From Methylophaga sp. (GTDB lineage Bacteria; Pseudomonadota; Gammaproteobacteria; Nitrosococcales; Methylophagaceae): a DNA stretch of 64,000 nt. The notes under the pieces were generated by a model, which saw only the letters and a program-made list of their open reading frames with translations, had not been told where the DNA came from and ran no database searches. Made by a program: the position numbers and the translations under genes. The stretch is taken from contig NVWQ02000027.1 of NCBI GenBank assembly GCA_002733715.2, positions 1 through 64,000 on the forward strand, given 5' to 3'. Shown here piece after piece: positions 80 through 60,677 of this stretch; position 1 is the first letter of the stretch, and each line of letters opens with the position of its first letter.

Positions 80-526
80 CTAATGAAATCTGGGAAGTCC
101 ACTTATTCCTATTGGTGAAACCTCCACGGGACGGTAATTAAAGAAGTATCGCGTATTATCAAACGGCCAGAAGAAGGCTATGCCCAAACCACCATTAGTG
201 AATGCATCAAGCACACCGTGTGATATCGCCGATAAAGATAAAATGATAAACACTGCTAATAATTTAGCTTTAAACTGGAAATAAGCACGAAAAAACACGC
301 CCGTGACTAACGCCGCCATCATTATAGAAAAGACAATGGAATGCGTAGCACCCCTATGCCCCCACGGGCTTTCATATGGCACGCCTATCAAAAAACCGAC
401 CACATCGGCATCTGGCAATAGCGACAATACTACCGAAAAGAATAAACAACGGCGCCAATAAGGATGATCATCAAAAATAGTTGTTGCTCCATAAGCAACA
501 AAGGCATGGGTGAAAATTGATGCCAT
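80..526 (-). CDS. YdjM/DUF457-like inner-membrane metal-dependent hydrolase family protein, short at C-terminus
   Basis: This 148-residue hydrophobic protein has the features of the DUF457 (YdjM-like, LexA-regulated in E. coli) family: an early D-A-D-V motif after the first membrane segment, HRGATHS near residue 57, and SHGVLDAFTNGG near residue 103, the conserved His/Asp positions thought to bind metal. About four hydrophobic segments are visible. Relatives usually run 160-200 residues and end with a further conserved segment after the SPIGIS motif. Here the frame stops eight residues after it, so the gene may be truncated or frameshifted; no convincing continuation was found in the other frames before the window edge. 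The promoter-bearing repeat at 564-620 points into it. The molecular function of the family is not established. Confidence 0.7.
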   Translation of the reverse strand: MASIFTHAFVAYGATTIFDDHPYWRRCLFFSVVLSLLPDADVVGFLIGVPYESPWGHRGATHSIVFSIMMAALVTGVFFRAYFQFKAKLLAVFIILSLSAISHGVLDAFTNGGLGIAFFWPFDNTRYFFNYRPVEVSPIGISGLPRFH

Positions 527-563
527 CGCTTAAACCGCCTTTCTATATACCCAAATTACTTGT

Positions 564-592
564 ACTATACTCGTAAAAATTCAATCTGTGGA
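564..592 (-). promoter_or_regulatory. Sigma70-like promoter inside a dispersed repeat, reading into the DUF457 gene
   Basis: On the minus strand TCCACA (587-592) and TATAGT (564-569) are separated by 17 nt, and the -10 box ends 37 nt before the ATG at 526. The same layout with better boxes occurs in the repeat copy at 18361-18419. Assignment is by consensus match and geometry only. Confidence 0.5.
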
Positions 593-620
593 TTTTCACT
601 CTTCCGTCACTCCGGTATGC
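564..620 (-). repeat. Promoter-bearing dispersed repeat, copy A
   Basis: Read on the minus strand, this segment aligns with 18361-18419 on the plus strand at about nine of ten positions over some 55 bp, starting with a shared ACCGGAGTGACGGA block and ending at the -10-like TATAGT. It overlaps the left arm of the palindromic element at 606-676, so the promoter part and the hairpin part look like one composite element. Coding sequence is absent. Confidence 0.65.
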
Positions 621-676
621 TTTTAGCCGGAGTCTTACTTGTGCGGAGATCCCAGCTAAAAGCATACTGGGATGAC
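606..676. repeat. GTCAYYCC palindromic element, copy 1 (double hairpin)
   Basis: The segment opens with GTCACTCC and closes with GGGATGAC. Each half can fold by itself (TCCGG...CCGGA and TCCCAG...CTGGGA), and the two halves are also complementary through a shared ATGCTTTTAGC core. Related elements lie at 38473-38555 and 41041-41115, with a half copy at 18361. All are intergenic. This is the build of small non-autonomous palindromic repeats (MITE/REP-like). Confidence 0.75.
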
Positions 677-738
677 GAGGTTTTTTGCAATTTTATGGGT
701 ATATAACAAACAAATATGAAGACAAGGATGCAAACACA

Positions 739-18360: not shown

Positions 18361-18419
18361 GCATATACCGGAGTGACGGAGGAGCGAAAATTCACACATT
18401 GAATGATTACGGGTATAAT
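18361..18419 (+). repeat. Promoter-bearing dispersed repeat, copy B
   Basis: This 59-bp segment matches copy A (564-620, minus strand) at about nine of ten positions, beginning with a half copy of the GTCAYYCC palindrome (ACCGGAGTGAC) and ending in TATAAT. It fills the gap between pgeF and the ZIP transporter gene. Confidence 0.65.
18391..18419 (+). promoter_or_regulatory. Sigma70 promoter for the ZIP transporter, carried by repeat copy B
   Basis: TTCACA (18391-18396), a 17-nt spacer and a perfect TATAAT (18414-18419) lie 35 nt before the ATG at 18455. A run of eight C (18434-18441) lies between the -10 box and the ribosome-binding site GGAATAAG. Confidence 0.65.
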
Positions 18420-18454: not shown

Positions 18455-19249
18455 ATGGAATTATTACTCTGGATCATTAGCTTTAGCCTAATTGGTGGCT
18501 TATTAAGCGTCATACTTGCATCGTCATTTTTATTATTGTCTGAAAGTGCGCGCAATGTCGCCGTACCTCACTTAGTCAGTTTTGCTATTGGCGCATTATT
18601 AGGCGCCTCATTATTAGGGCTTATCCCTCACGCCTTAGATCCTGAGTTTAGTGTCGATCCACATGATATTGGCTTAACGTTACTGCTTGGTCTTCTCAGC
18701 TTTTTTGTATTAGAAAAGCTCGTTCTTTGGCGTCATTGTCATCACGATCACTGTGACGTTCATGATCCCGATTCATCTGCCCACACTCACGACAACAAAG
18801 CTAAAGCTGCAGGCACATTAATTCTGGTAGGTGACGGCATTCATAACTTTGTCGACGGAATTCTGATTACTGCCGCATTTCTTACTGATACTCATTTAGG
18901 TATTGTCACTGCATTAGCAATTGCCGCTCATGAAATTCCACAAGAATTAGGAGACTTTGTCATTTTATTACACAGCGGATTCAGCCGTAAGAAAGCATTG
19001 TTCTTTAATATACTTTCAAGCTTAAGCACCGTTGTAGGAGCCGTTATGGCCTATTTCCTATTAGCAGATATGCAGTTTTTACTACCCTATATTCTAGTTG
19101 TTGCCGCTTCTAGTTTTATTTATATTGCTGTTGCCGACTTGATTCCCGGCTTACATCACAAAGTTAAACCATCAGAAACATTGCAACAAATTTCACTTAT
19201 CGCTGCAGGCACAATATTTATATATATTACCCACAGCACACTGCACTAA
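18455..19249 (+). CDS. ZIP-family divalent metal transporter
   Basis: A 264-residue inner-membrane ZIP transporter with about eight hydrophobic segments, importing Zn2+ or related ions. A cytoplasmic loop is rich in His and Asp (CHHDHCDVHDPD, then HTHD), typical of metal-binding ZIP loops. Helix 4 carries the HNFVDGI motif and helix 5 HEIPQELGD, the two signature metal-site motifs. It is 264 residues, like ZupT (257), but the HEIPQELGD form fits the broader ZIP group. The gene starts 36 nt after a repeat-borne promoter, and waaF follows after 4 nt, so the LPS genes downstream may share this transcript. Confidence 0.88.
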   Translation: MELLLWIISFSLIGGLLSVILASSFLLLSESARNVAVPHLVSFAIGALLGASLLGLIPHALDPEFSVDPHDIGLTLLLGLLSFFVLEKLVLWRHCHHDHCDVHDPDSSAHTHDNKAKAAGTLILVGDGIHNFVDGILITAAFLTDTHLGIVTALAIAAHEIPQELGDFVILLHSGFSRKKALFFNILSSLSTVVGAVMAYFLLADMQFLLPYILVVAASSFIYIAVADLIPGLHHKVKPSETLQQISLIAAGTIFIYITHSTLH

Positions 19250-29241: not shown

Positions 29242-29881
29242 TATTCATATAAGTTTTGACCTTGATGGAACACTTATTGACAGTATTCCATTAATGAAAG
29301 ATAGTTGGGAAAATGCTAATAAATTATTAAATTTAAAAGTGGGCTGGGAACAATATCGGGCAAATATTGGGCTTCATTTTGATGAAATTTGTAGCAACCT
29401 CAATCTTGAATTTGCAAAGGAAGAAATAAAACAAACCTATTTTGAATATAACAAAAATAATATTAAGAAAATCCAATTAATGCCAGGTGTATCAACGCTA
29501 CTTCAAGAGCTATCTGAGCAGCATATTTCATGGTCGATACTCACGTCAAAGCCTAGATATACTGCTGAAGATATTATTCAGCATTTTGGTTTTCAACCTG
29601 CTGCAATGATATGTTCAGATGATGTCAAAATAGGAAAGCCTCATCCGGAGAGTGCAGACCTATTACAAAAAAGATTGCTCCACCAAAAGTTTGAAGATAC
29701 CTATTATGTAGGAGATACAGTCATCGACCATATTTTTGCCCTCAATTCTGGATTCCAATTTATTCAGTTCCAGCAACAAACACAGGCTATGCTAGATAGT
29801 GAAAAAACAGATGCACTTATTTTAAACCCTCGACCCATAATACATTCAATGGATGTATTGCTAACTACTATATCCTCGTAA
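29231..29881 (+). CDS. HAD-superfamily phosphatase (phosphoglycolate-phosphatase-like)
   Basis: A 216-residue HAD hydrolase. Motif I is FDLDGTLIDS (about residue 9), motif II has the Thr/Ser in ILTSKPRY, motif III the Lys in CSDDVKIGKPHPE, and motif IV VGDTVIDH. The alpha-helical cap is of the C1 (PGP) type. It is neither the tetrameric KdsC type nor the GmhB type by sequence pattern, yet it overlaps kdsB, which suggests a role in sugar-phosphate dephosphorylation for core precursors. Substrate unknown. Confidence 0.8.
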   Translation: MNANIHISFDLDGTLIDSIPLMKDSWENANKLLNLKVGWEQYRANIGLHFDEICSNLNLEFAKEEIKQTYFEYNKNNIKKIQLMPGVSTLLQELSEQHISWSILTSKPRYTAEDIIQHFGFQPAAMICSDDVKIGKPHPESADLLQKRLLHQKFEDTYYVGDTVIDHIFALNSGFQFIQFQQQTQAMLDSEKTDALILNPRPIIHSMDVLLTTISS

Positions 29882-29912
29882 TCATTCAATCTGCATGACT
29901 ACGAATATAGAT

Positions 29913-30250
29913 TATATACCCAAACGCATTCAAGATGCAGATGAAAACTGCTGAAAGTTATCATTTATGGTAGTATCTAGTGAGCTCGAGAGCTGAGGTA
30001 ATGTCGTAGAGAAAAACCGGTCGATTTGTTCTCTAAATTCATTAGTAGTTGCAAAATATCGGTTATTGCGAGCATGTTTGTTCATGATCTTCCAGAGTCG
30101 CTCAATCGGGTTTAGATTTGGACTGTATGGTGGAAGAAAATGGAGCGTTATTTTCTGTTTTTCAGCCGCTTCACTAACGGCTTTGGAGCGATGATAACCT
30201 GCGCGATCAAGCACTAAATGGATCGTGCCACTGCTTGGTTGGGTAGGCAC
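29913..30250 (-). mobile_element. Truncated IS630-family element (C-terminal transposase fragment with one end)
   Basis: Codons 30250 down to 29930 (minus strand) encode a 106-residue fragment with LDRAGYHRSKAV and LPPYSPNLNPIERLW, the second Asp and the DDE-type Glu region of IS630/Tc1 transposases. The first catalytic Asp domain and helix-turn-helix are missing, so it is not functional. The transposon end after the stop is TATATACCCAAACGCATTCA (29913-29932); IS630 elements insert at TA. The other end is not found. The 13-bp TATATACCCAAAC occurs again at 32334-32346 in the same orientation. Confidence 0.8.
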
Positions 30251-37554: not shown

Positions 37555-38345
37555 CAGCCCATTTAGATCAACGTAAACAAATTGCAGATACGGGAGTATT
37601 TATATCGCCACTAGGTTTAGGCACAGTAAAAATAGGTCGAAATACCGCCGTAAAATACCCTGACAGCTTCAAAATACCCGATGATGAACAAGTACAAAAC
37701 CTACTAGCCCAAGCATGGGATTTAGGCATTAACTTAATCGACACCGCACCCGCTTACGGCAACAGCGAACAACGCCTAGGTGAGTTATTAACAAAACAAG
37801 ATCATGACTTTGTCATTGCCACAAAAGTAGGTGAAACCTTCGATGCCAAAACAGGTGAATCTCATTACAACTTCACCCCAGAATTTATCACCGCCAGCAT
37901 CCACCAAAGCCTAAAAAACCTACGTAGAGACGTACTCGATATCGTATTAATTCATTCTGATGGCAACGACAAACAGATAATAGAACAAGGCGCATTAGAG
38001 GTATTAAACGATTTGAAACAACAAGGTTTGATTAGAGCCACAGGCATGTCCACCAAAACAGTAGAAGGCGGCTTATTAGCACTACAACAATCCGACCTAG
38101 CCATGGTGATGCATAATCTAGACTATCAAGCCGAACAAGCAGTACTAGACCAAGCTGCAAAAGATAACAAAGGCATCTTCATCAAAAAAGCCCTCGCCAG
38201 TGGTCATTTATCAAAAGACAGCGTGCAAGATAACTTCAACCTTATTTATGCTAATCAAGCAGTGAGTAGCATCATTATCGGCACAATCAACCCAACGCAT
38301 CTTGAAGATAATGTTGTTAAGACATTAAAAGCATTAACACCGTAG
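37551..38345 (+). CDS. Aldo/keto reductase
   Basis: A 264-residue NAD(P)H-dependent aldo/keto reductase of the D-threo-aldose-dehydrogenase/L-galactose-dehydrogenase branch. The catalytic tetrad is Asp-Tyr-Lys-His: LIDTAPAYGNSEQRLGELL (Asp about 63, Tyr about 68), the Lys of VIATKVG near 91, and a His in VLIHSDG near 133. It is short (typical AKRs run about 300-330), lacking part of the C-terminal loop. The stop codon TAG is contributed by the first bases of a GTAGGTTGGG repeat. It is coupled to the FAD oxidoreductase, which suggests a common substrate, perhaps a heptose or other aldose. Confidence 0.82.
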   Translation: MTAHLDQRKQIADTGVFISPLGLGTVKIGRNTAVKYPDSFKIPDDEQVQNLLAQAWDLGINLIDTAPAYGNSEQRLGELLTKQDHDFVIATKVGETFDAKTGESHYNFTPEFITASIHQSLKNLRRDVLDIVLIHSDGNDKQIIEQGALEVLNDLKQQGLIRATGMSTKTVEGGLLALQQSDLAMVMHNLDYQAEQAVLDQAAKDNKGIFIKKALASGHLSKDSVQDNFNLIYANQAVSSIIIGTINPTHLEDNVVKTLKALTP

Positions 38346-38421
38346 GTTGGGATGATGCAAAAATCCCAACGCCACCGCAACATATAGAAATTGTTGGGTT
38401 TCGTACCTCAACCCAACCTAC
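38342..38421. repeat. GTAGGTTGGG...CCCAACCTAC palindromic repeat, copy 1
   Basis: The segment begins GTAGGTTGGGATGATGC and ends CTCAACCCAACCTAC. It has near-perfect terminal arms, with inner ATCCCAAC and GTTGGGTTTCGTACC segments. A related element lies at 60612-60677. The first GTAG gives the stop codon of the upstream gene. Confidence 0.75.
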
Positions 38422-43574: not shown

Positions 43575-46346
43575 ATGAAACAAACAGCCCCTTTTATCTT
43601 AGTTGATGGCTCCTCTTATCTTTATCGCGCTTACCATGCAATGAGCCAAGCCAATCTTACCAATGCCCAAGGGCAAGCGACCGGCGCAATTTATGGTGTT
43701 GTGAACATGCTTAGAAAGCTGCTAGTTCAGTACAAACCTGAGCTTATAGCCGTCGTTTTTGATGCTAAGGGAAAAACCTTTCGCAATGAACTGTATGCAG
43801 AATATAAAGCCACTCGCCCGCCGATGCCTGATGATTTGCGCGAACAAATTGAACCATTACATGATGTCGTTCGTGCGATGGGATTTCCGTTAATAATGGT
43901 TTCAGGTGTTGAAGCGGATGATGTGATCGGCACTTTGGCTCAGCAAGCCACTGATTTAAAACTTGACACGGTTATTTCCACTGGCGATAAAGATATGGCG
44001 CAGTTGGTCAATGAGCATGTCACTTTAATCAATACTATGAGCAACACCATGACGGATATTGATGCTGTGCATGAAAAATATGGCATTGCGCCGAACCGTA
44101 TTATTGATTATCTCGCACTGATGGGCGACAAGGTTGATAATATTCCTGGCGTGCCCAGTGTGGGCCCTAAAACGGCAACTAAATTGTTGCAGCAATACGA
44201 TTCCTTAGAAGGCGTTATTGCTCATGCCAAGGAAGTCAAAGGAAAAATGGGGGAGAAATTACGTGAAGCCGCGGCTGATCTGCCACTTTCTTACCAGCTC
44301 GCTACCATTAAGCTTGATGTTGAGCTAGATGATACGCCCACCAGTTTGCAGCTGCAACAACCCGATCGTGAGGCTTTGTTAGCTTTATTTAAACACCTTG
44401 AATTTAGAACCTGGACAAAAGAATTAGCTGTAAATCAAGGGGGCAGCCAGCTTGATTTGCCATCAAAAAATGGCGTTCAAGATAAACCTCCCGGAATCAA
44501 GCTGGCTGCCCCCTTGATTCCTGAGCCGCCAGCGGAACAGAATTATCAAACAATTTTAACGCAAGCACAGTTAGATTCATGGCTAAAAAAACTAAAAAAC
44601 TCCGACCTGTTTGCTTTTGATACTGAAACCACCAGCCTAAATTATCTTGATGCCCGTATTGTCGGTTTATCGTTTGCTGTTAAAGCAGGTGAAGCGGCCT
44701 ATTTACCACTAAAACATGATTATATGGGTGCGCCCGAACAACTTGATTTTAATTCGGTCATGGCACAGTTCAAGCCTTTATTAGAAGATCCTAAACAATT
44801 TAAAGTAGGTCAAAACCTCAAATATGATCGCCATATTCTGCTCAATCACGACATTGATTTACAAGGTATTCAGCATGACACCATGTTGCAATCATACGTG
44901 TTGAACAGCACAGCAACTCAACACAATATGGATGCATTGGCAGAAAAATATTTAGATCGCAATACAATTCATTTTGAAGATGTGGCAGGCAAAGGTAAAA
45001 AGCAACTGACGTTTAATCAAATTGATCTTGAACAAGCCTCACCTTATGCCGCCGAAGATGCTGATATCACATTGCAGCTACATCAGACCTTATGGCCACA
45101 ATTGCAGGCGATTCCAAGTTTAGAAAAAGTCTACACCGAACTTGAAATGCCGTTATTACCTGTTATCAATTCGCTTGAACGCAATGGCGTCAACATTGAT
45201 ATTTGGATGTTGCAGCAACAAAGTGATGAGCTCGGCCATAAAATAGATAAATTACAACAACAAGCATGGCAGATCGCCGGTGAAGAGTTCAACTTGGGTT
45301 CGCCTAAACAATTAGGTACCATTTTGTATGACAAGCTTGAATTGCCCATTTTGAAAAAAACACCCAAAGGCCAAGCTTCAACTGCTGAAAGTGTGCTGCA
45401 AGATCTCGCTGATGATGGCCACGAGCTACCGCAAGTTATTATGCAATATCGTAGTTTGAGTAAACTCAAATCAACCTATACCGATCGCCTTCCAGAGCAA
45501 GTTAATAGCTCAACAGGCCGTGTTCACACCTCTTATCATCAGGCGGTAACAGCCACGGGACGCTTGTCGTCATCCGATCCTAATTTACAAAATATTCCCA
45601 TTCGCAGTGAAGAAGGCCGCCGTATTCGTGAAGCCTTTGTGCCGCCCGAGGGTTATACCCTGCTCGCTGCTGATTATTCGCAAATTGAATTGCGAATAAT
45701 GGCACATTTATCACAAGATCAAAGCCTACTAAAAGCGTTTGCTGCTGGCGAAGATATTCATCGCCACACCGCATCAGAAATATTTGCTGTCGCATTAGAT
45801 GATGTGTCTAGCGATCAACGTCGTAGCGCCAAAGCCATTAACTTTGGTTTAATTTATGGCATGTCAGCGCATGGTTTATCAAAACAATTAGGCATTGAAC
45901 GCCACCAAGCAGCCGATTATATGACCACCTATTTTGAACGTTATCCCGGTGTGAAAGATTATATGAACAGCACCCGCGAACAAGCTAAATTGGATGGTTA
46001 TGTTGAAACCTTATTCGGTCGTCGTTTATACCTACCCGAAATTAACGCTAGCAACGGTATGCGTCGTCAATATGCTGAGCGCACAGCGATTAATGCACCA
46101 ATGCAAGGTACGGCAGCAGATATTATTAAACACGCAATGATTGCTATTCAACACTGGCTAGAAGAATCAAACAGTAATATTAGAATGATTATGCAAGTGC
46201 ATGATGAACTGGTATTTGAAGTACCACTTGATCAGATCGATGATGCCAAAGCTAATATTGAAAAATATATGATGGATGCAGCTGAACTGGATGTGCCACT
46301 AGAAGTCAGTATGGATACCGGTGATAATTGGGAACAAGCGCATTAG
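43575..46346 (+). CDS. polA: DNA polymerase I
   Basis: The replication and repair polymerase, 923 residues from the ATG at 43575 (a GTG five codons upstream is also in frame, but MKQTAPFILVDGSSYLYRAY fits family N-termini better). Three domains: the 5'-nuclease (residues about 1-285), with GDKDMAQLV and YLALMGDKVDNIPGVPSVGPKTA; the 3'-5' exonuclease (about 330-510) with FAFDTETTSL, whose Asp and Glu are intact so proofreading should be active; and the family A polymerase with the finger helix RRSAKAINFGLIYG, and the palm motifs DYSQIELR and VHDELVF. The linker between the nuclease and exonuclease domains, residues 287-315, contains a perfect 25-bp inverted repeat (44433-44457 with 44495-44519) that is in frame. 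Confidence 0.97.
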   Translation: MKQTAPFILVDGSSYLYRAYHAMSQANLTNAQGQATGAIYGVVNMLRKLLVQYKPELIAVVFDAKGKTFRNELYAEYKATRPPMPDDLREQIEPLHDVVRAMGFPLIMVSGVEADDVIGTLAQQATDLKLDTVISTGDKDMAQLVNEHVTLINTMSNTMTDIDAVHEKYGIAPNRIIDYLALMGDKVDNIPGVPSVGPKTATKLLQQYDSLEGVIAHAKEVKGKMGEKLREAAADLPLSYQLATIKLDVELDDTPTSLQLQQPDREALLALFKHLEFRTWTKELAVNQGGSQLDLPSKNGVQDKPPGIKLAAPLIPEPPAEQNYQTILTQAQLDSWLKKLKNSDLFAFDTETTSLNYLDARIVGLSFAVKAGEAAYLPLKHDYMGAPEQLDFNSVMAQFKPLLEDPKQFKVGQNLKYDRHILLNHDIDLQGIQHDTMLQSYVLNSTATQHNMDALAEKYLDRNTIHFEDVAGKGKKQLTFNQIDLEQASPYAAEDADITLQLHQTLWPQLQAIPSLEKVYTELEMPLLPVINSLERNGVNIDIWMLQQQSDELGHKIDKLQQQAWQIAGEEFNLGSPKQLGTILYDKLELPILKKTPKGQASTAESVLQDLADDGHELPQVIMQYRSLSKLKSTYTDRLPEQVNSSTGRVHTSYHQAVTATGRLSSSDPNLQNIPIRSEEGRRIREAFVPPEGYTLLAADYSQIELRIMAHLSQDQSLLKAFAAGEDIHRHTASEIFAVALDDVSSDQRRSAKAINFGLIYGMSAHGLSKQLGIERHQAADYMTTYFERYPGVKDYMNSTREQAKLDGYVETLFGRRLYLPEINASNGMRRQYAERTAINAPMQGTAADIIKHAMIAIQHWLEESNSNIRMIMQVHDELVFEVPLDQIDDAKANIEKYMMDAAELDVPLEVSMDTGDNWEQAH
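44433..44519. repeat. Perfect 25-bp inverted repeat within polA linker
   Basis: The arm at 44433-44457 (AATCAAGGGGGCAGCCAGCT then TGATT) and the arm at 44495-44519 are exact reverse complements, separated by 37 bp that themselves hold a GCCAT/ATGGC hairpin. Each arm also begins AATCAAG and ends CTTGATT. The left arm encodes NQGGSQLD and the right arm GIKLAAPLI, so the element is translated. Confidence 0.9.
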
Positions 46347-60611: not shown

Positions 60612-60677
60612 GTAGGTTGGCTTGAGGAACGAAACCCAACATCGATTGTTGAGATTCCTACGTCATCCCAAGCTACG
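60612..60677. repeat. GTAGGTTGG...CCAAGCTACGC palindromic repeat, copy 2
   Basis: It begins GTAGGTTGGCTTGAGGAACG and ends GTCATCCCAAGCTACGC, with inner AACGAAACCCAACA sequence as in copy 1. Its last CTA (60673-60675) is the nadA stop codon read on the minus strand. Confidence 0.7.

What the first reader, a model, noticed from the sequence alone, without database searches (positions are those of the whole stretch)
541..620. A dispersed 57-59 bp repeat that carries a sigma70 promoter at a fixed distance before two unrelated membrane-protein genes
Seen: minus-strand 564-620 and plus-strand 18361-18419 agree at about nine of ten positions, each beginning with an ACCGGAGTGACGGA arm and ending with a -10-like box (TATAGT; TATAAT). 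Both keep a 17-nt spacer and a -35 box (TCCACA; TTCACA). The distance from the -10 box to the start codon is 37 nt for the DUF457 gene and 35 nt for the ZIP transporter gene. Inference: the palindromic element may move as a unit with an outward promoter and so rewire expression of neighbours.
Basis: partly seen in the sequence, partly recalled or inferred. Interest (0 to 1): 0.7.

Follow-up and report, generated by a model that had tools for sequence, protein, structure and literature searches.

The report
Mini-transposon end grafted onto native promoters
The repeat is one end of a small, dispersed, gene-less transposon of a marine methylotroph-like bacterium; in both places it landed inside an already existing promoter box, so it probably swaps the upstream half of that promoter, a trick already known from the Correia elements of Neisseria.

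Summary
In detail: the two copies match at 87% over 53 bp, share a 17-nt spacer, and the distances of 37 and 35 nt are correct. The repeat is not a 57-59 bp unit. It is one end of a roughly 110-180 bp non-autonomous transposon (MITE) with IS630-type inverted ends (TACCCGTGATCATTCAAT) and a TA target duplication. Copy 1 is a full 134-bp element (568-701); copy 2 is a left-truncated end (18362-18415). There are 21 close copies and 109 such ends in the genome (reversed-pattern control 0), and more across the genus. An intact IS630 with the same ends sits in a related Methylophaga genome (G017). Empty sites in relatives show that both -10 boxes are native: TATAGT in G017 for DUF457, and TATAAT/TATGAT conserved genus-wide for ZIP. 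The element inserted at their TA and put its own -35-like hexamer exactly 17 nt upstream. So the repeat carries a -35 plus half a -10, and the host completes it. Copies are not enriched upstream of genes (18 start-facing, 16 stop-facing; null 53%) and their distances range from 6 to 425 nt. This matches the published 'Black promoter' of Correia elements: a new member of a known kind. Promoter activity itself is untested.

The parts
568..701 (-). Full-length MITE, copy 1 (subfamily A, 134 bp): left end TACCCATAAAATTGCAAAAAACC..., two CGTC-tagged hairpins, right end ...GAGTA facing the DUF457 gene
   Evidence: Genome copies aligned by eye and paired ends; empty site in G017
566..567 (.). TA target duplication, DUF457 side
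   Evidence: Empty site TTGTTTGTTATAGTATAAG in G017 locus L187
702..703 (.). TA target duplication, other side
   Evidence: Same
587..592 (-). -35-like hexamer TCCACA supplied by the element
   Evidence: scoring
564..569 (-). -10 box TATAGT: first TA from the element, TA from the duplicated target, GT from the host; TATAGT is present in the empty site
80..526 (-). DUF457-type membrane protein gene (148 aa; weak match to PRK11648 metal-dependent hydrolase)
604..677 (.). Internal palindrome: two CGTC-tagged hairpins (CGTCACTCCGGTATGCTTTTAGCCGGAGTCT and CGTCATCCCAGTATGCTTTTAGCTGGGATCT); the element strand folds at -46.5 kcal/mol, z -6.4
18362..18415 (+). Copy 2: left-truncated MITE (right half only), ending GGGTA at the ZIP promoter
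18391..18396 (+). -35-like hexamer TTCACA supplied by the element
18414..18419 (+). -10 box TATAAT; native box is TATAAT in G017 and TATRAT upstream of ZIP across the genus
18455..19249 (+). ZIP-family metal transporter gene (264 aa; matches ZupT model PRK04201 below its cut-off)
29913..30250 (-). IS630-family transposase C-terminal fragment with an outer end TATACCCAAACGCATTCAAGATGCAG; remnant of a related autonomous element

Best explanation
The repeat is one terminus of an IS630-type MITE. SHOWN: ends matching an intact IS630 in a relative; TA target duplication; preference for TATA targets; many copies in this genome and genus; at both window loci the insertion went into the TA of a pre-existing -10-like box, leaving a -10 intact while replacing everything upstream of it; the incoming end carries a T-N-N-A-C-A hexamer exactly 17 nt upstream. 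INFERRED: RNA polymerase uses the hybrid promoter (element -35 plus native -10), so the insertions changed the strength and upstream control of the DUF457 and ZIP genes without moving the transcription start; copies were mobilised in trans by an IS630 transposase of the kind still intact in G017; copy 2 later lost its left half. The stated confidence is for the identity as an IS630-type MITE inserted at native -10 boxes; actual use as a promoter I would put at about 0.55.
For: 21 copies of the 62-bp end in the genome. 62 + 47 ends match TATACCCGTGATCATTCAAT within 3 mismatches against 0 for the reversed control; ends also in many same-genus genomes and rare elsewhere. About 45 paired ends enclose 83-277 bp. 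Intact IS630 in G017 (L151:70-1180; IS630 equivalog model E 1.8e-65) has ends TATACCCGTGATCATTGAAACTGCAG and TATACCCGTAATCCTTCAATTTGCAG. Empty sites: DUF457 in G017; ZIP in 26 same-genus genomes, -10 conserved about 35 nt before the ATG; uvrD and ndk in G023. Target: TA followed by TA in 45% of ends against 10.5% of intergenic TA. -35 score of T..ACA ends is on average at the 91st percentile of intergenic TATA sites, 34 of 35 at 17 nt; native upstream hexamers in the relatives score far lower.
Against: No expression data. Only decayed IS630 fragments were found in this genome, and their recognisable ends differ somewhat from the MITE ends. The -35 hexamers are imperfect and their 2nd and 3rd positions vary most among copies, which does not suggest selection on them. 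Promoter-like ends are not enriched facing genes. The avoidance of the last 25 nt before a start codon by promoter-like ends (2/52 against 13/49, p 0.0016) was found post hoc and was not significant in new data (0/17 against 3/31).
Confidence: 0.85

Rival explanations
1. One reading: a 57-59 bp promoter cassette moves as a unit and brings a complete sigma70 promoter to a fixed distance from genes.
For: Two copies with the same -35/-10 geometry at 37 and 35 nt; 34 of 35 T..ACA ends have the 17-nt geometry.
Against: The unit is about 134-150 bp with a second inverted end; both -10 boxes pre-exist in relatives; orientation is random and distances are broad.
Confidence: 0.05
2. The elements are neutral insertions that the genome tolerates because they leave the native -10 in place; the -35-like hexamer is coincidental and the genes are expressed as before, or through some other -35 or activator.
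For: Random orientation; variable -35 positions; insertion into TATA targets alone explains the location.
Against: Any native -35 at 17 nt has been displaced by the insertion, so expression must use the element's sequence, an upstream readthrough transcript, or an activator; the element hexamer scores better than the native sequence.
Confidence: 0.4
3. The internal hairpins, not the ends, are what matters: the element acts as an RNA-level or terminator-like regulatory hairpin.
For: Very stable fold, z -6.4; Correia RNA is cut by RNase III (PMC10969869, PMC2649163).
Against: Copy 2 has lost half of the palindrome, and at the DUF457 and ZIP genes the hairpins lie upstream of the predicted transcription start.
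Confidence: 0.15

Closest known systems
Correia repeat enclosed elements (CREE, nemis) of Neisseria and their 'Black promoter'
   Same: Roughly 70-160 bp MITE; ends begin TATA; TA target duplication; a -35 and a partial -10 lie in the element and the target completes the -10 (PMC2649163); target preference resembles -10 boxes and favours fusion promoters (PMC9330008).
   Different: Different end sequence (TACCCGTGATCATTCAAT, not TATAGYGGATTAA...), different core (CGTC-tagged hairpins), different host; an IS630 source is identified here.
IS630 / Tc1-mariner family insertion sequences
   Same: TA target duplication and matching terminal repeats; intact IS630 with the same ends in G017.
   Different: No transposase in the element; the TGCA of the IS630 ends is TGTGNA/TGTAAA in the promoter-like MITE ends.
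IS elements forming hybrid promoters with a resident -10 (for example IS2, IS256, IS257; PMC9330008)
   Same: Outward -35 in the end plus a resident -10 at 17-bp spacing.
   Different: Here the target duplication (TA) is itself part of the -10, so the spacing is preset whenever the insertion hits the second TA of TATANT.
CGTC-tagged REP palindromes (PMC3733652)
   Same: The element core consists of CGTC-tagged hairpins that also occur alone elsewhere in this genome.
   Different: In the MITE they lie between IS630 ends, which would give them a transposase.

Membership tests
IS630-derived MITE | Terminal inverted repeats matching an IS630-family element | tested here: met
   G017 IS630 ends match
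IS630-derived MITE | TA target-site duplication | tested here: met
   Empty sites at DUF457, uvrD and ndk
IS630-derived MITE | Short, no transposase gene, many copies | tested here: met
   134 bp; dozens of copies
IS630-derived MITE | Mobilised by the IS630 transposase in trans | not testable with these tools
   Needs an in vivo or in vitro transposition assay
Correia element | End sequence TATAGYGGATTAA... | tested here: not met
   No element end matches; 6 weak hits in the window against 4.8 expected
Correia element | Element-borne -35 and partial -10 completed by the target (Black promoter geometry) | tested here: met
   Sequence level only
Correia element | Measured promoter activity | not testable with these tools
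   No transcript data
CGTC REP (internal hairpins) | CGTC tag at one end of a short palindrome, multicopy | tested here: met
   106 matches to one hairpin type, 0 for the reversed control
CGTC REP (internal hairpins) | Unpaired tail fitting CCA, loop of 4-5 nt | not tested
   -

The most novel reading that the evidence does not exclude
CGTC-tagged REP palindromes, reported to lack any dedicated transposase (PMC3733652), are spread in this genus by being packaged between IS630 ends: 11 of 30 sampled CGTC-hairpin loci lie between two IS630-type ends and 5 more next to one. This would link REP spread to promoter grafting in one small element.
Probability: 0.3. Interest if true: 0.5.

Novelty: new member of a known kind. 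Interest (0 to 1): 0.35.

Why it matters
It gives a clean, sequence-level example with empty sites of how a TA-targeting mini-transposon can land inside a promoter, keep the -10 box and replace only the -35 side, here before a metal transporter and a membrane protein gene. It extends the Correia-type mechanism to an unrelated marine gammaproteobacterial genus with an identified IS630 source, and it suggests a possible vehicle for CGTC REP palindromes.

Tried and rejected
Promoter-guided placement: rejected. Orientation matches the null in this genome (18 start:16 stop), in G017/NORP53 loci (34:19, null 60%) and in G023 (13:10, null 60%). Selection for a fixed promoter-start distance: start-facing ends of both classes are over-represented at 25-50 nt (T..ACA 16/52..GCA 11/49; TATA null 14%), so this is better explained by native -10 boxes being TATA targets than by the -35. 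Avoidance of the last 25 nt by promoter-like ends looked significant (p 0.0016) but was post hoc and did not reach significance in new data (p 0.54). Preferential targeting of perfect -10 boxes: not seen; TATAAT and TATAGT make up about 10 of 107 ends, at or below expectation from intergenic TA sites. Intact IS630 in the window's own genome: none found, two fragments only. Correia membership: end sequence not met. The primary Correia promoter paper PMC3024310 is not held.

Full report
1. Observation. The -35/-10 hexamers, the 17-nt spacer and the 37/35-nt distances are correct. The promoter motif alone is not above chance in the window; the shared repeat is.

2. The unit. A search of the window's own genome (2.83 Mb, 80 contigs, window = contig 25) with the 62-bp end gave 21 matches. 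Reading their flanks shows a longer element: a left end TATACYCGTGATCATTCAATTTGCAAAAAACC, a pair of CGTC-tagged hairpins, and a right end ...GGAGCGAAAATTCACAGATTGAATGATCACGGGTATA. The 20-nt end pattern occurs 109 times within 3 mismatches, the reversed control never. About 45 pairs of inverted ends enclose 83-277 bp and fall into several subfamilies. One of these, 162 bp long, has TTYACA-N17-TATA at both ends. In the window, copy 1 is complete (568-701). Copy 2 is a left-truncated half (18362-18415), joined to host DNA after AAATAAAG; a deletion at the short AAAG homology is an inference.

3. Organism and source. Exact ends in the named genome collection occur only in Methylophaga-type MAGs (NORP53 above all) plus one unclassified proteobacterial MAG. 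Contig lengths show that G017 is NORP53. In G017 an intact 1.1-kb IS630-family element (IS630 equivalog model, E 1.8e-65; DDE_3) has ends TATACCCGTGATCATTGAAACTGCAG and TATACCCGTAATCCTTCAATTTGCAG, that is, the MITE ends. The window's genome keeps only fragments, one of them in the window (29913-30250; 66% identical to the G017 transposase).

4. Empty sites and the origin of the -10 boxes. DUF457: G017 reads TTGTTTGTTATAGTATAAG where the window has TTGTTTGTTA-TA-[TACCC...GAGTA]-TA-GTACAAG. This gives a TA duplication and shows TATAGT before insertion. G023 has two other MITEs at exactly this TA. ZIP: none of the 26 same-genus relatives with the gene carries this element at the promoter; G017 reads AAATAAAGTATAATC, most others AAATAAGGTATGATC, about 35 nt before the ATG. 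So TATAAT is a conserved native box and its distance to the ATG is native. uvrD and ndk give further empty sites with one TA. In both window cases the second TA of TATANT was the target, so the element's terminal TA replaces the first TA of the box and the -10 survives unchanged.

5. Promoter reading. 34 of 35 T..ACA ends place their best -35 at 17 nt, and their scores average the 91st percentile of intergenic TATA sites (matrix frequencies from memory). ZIP goes from about -4 to -1 in relatives to +5.5; DUF457 from -3.7 to +1.3. This predicts a hybrid promoter; it does not show one. Against a general promoter role: orientation is random in this genome, G017/NORP53 and G023.

6. Targets. 45% of ends lie next to a further TA against 10.5% of intergenic TA sites. 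TATA-rich targets include -10 boxes, which can explain the over-representation of ends of both classes 25-50 nt before start codons without any selection for the -35. Gene calls behind these counts are my own simple ORF calls, so individual distances may be off where a start codon is misjudged.

7. Known kinds. PMC2649163 describes the 'Black promoter' of Correia elements: -35 and a partial -10 in the element, completed at some insertion sites. PMC9330008 notes that the TA/TATA targets of these elements favour fusion promoters. PMC10969869 lists other MITEs with sigma70-like promoters (MITEAba12, BrickBuilt, QMITE1, SonMITE_1). The window element works like these at the sequence level, is not a Correia element, and is a new IS630-derived MITE family.

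8. Extra lead. The core hairpins are of the CGTC-tagged REP type, said to lack a transposase (PMC3733652). 106 matches to one hairpin type exist; of 30 loci, 11 lie between two IS630-type ends, 5 beside one and 14 have none.

Noticed in passing
L003, L010, L016, L020, L021 (element cores): A 25-nt insert (ACCCAGTCGAGCTGAGCACAAGCTT or close) sits in the loop of some CGTC-type hairpins and is absent from otherwise identical ones; looks like a nested tiny repeat.
   Followed up: no
window 29870-29913: A degenerate ~40-bp pair of MITE ends (TATCCTCGTAATCATTCAATCTGCATGACTACGAATATA) next to the IS630 fragment.
   Followed up: no
window 38344-38421 and 60612-60677: GTAG-type palindromes (GTAGGTTGGG...CCCAACCTAC) in two places.
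   Followed up: no
window 44433-44519: Perfect 25-bp inverted repeat (AATCAAGGGGGCAGCCAGCTTGATT) inside a 928-aa ORF.
   Followed up: no
L186 (G023) upstream of the DUF457 homologue: Two different MITEs inserted in tandem at exactly the TA used by the window copy: a repeat-hit target.
   Followed up: partly
L211 and L239 (nadC upstream), L213 and L235 (C4:7818 homologue): Relatives also carry IS630-type ends at or very near the same upstream position, either shared by descent or repeat hits.
   Followed up: partly
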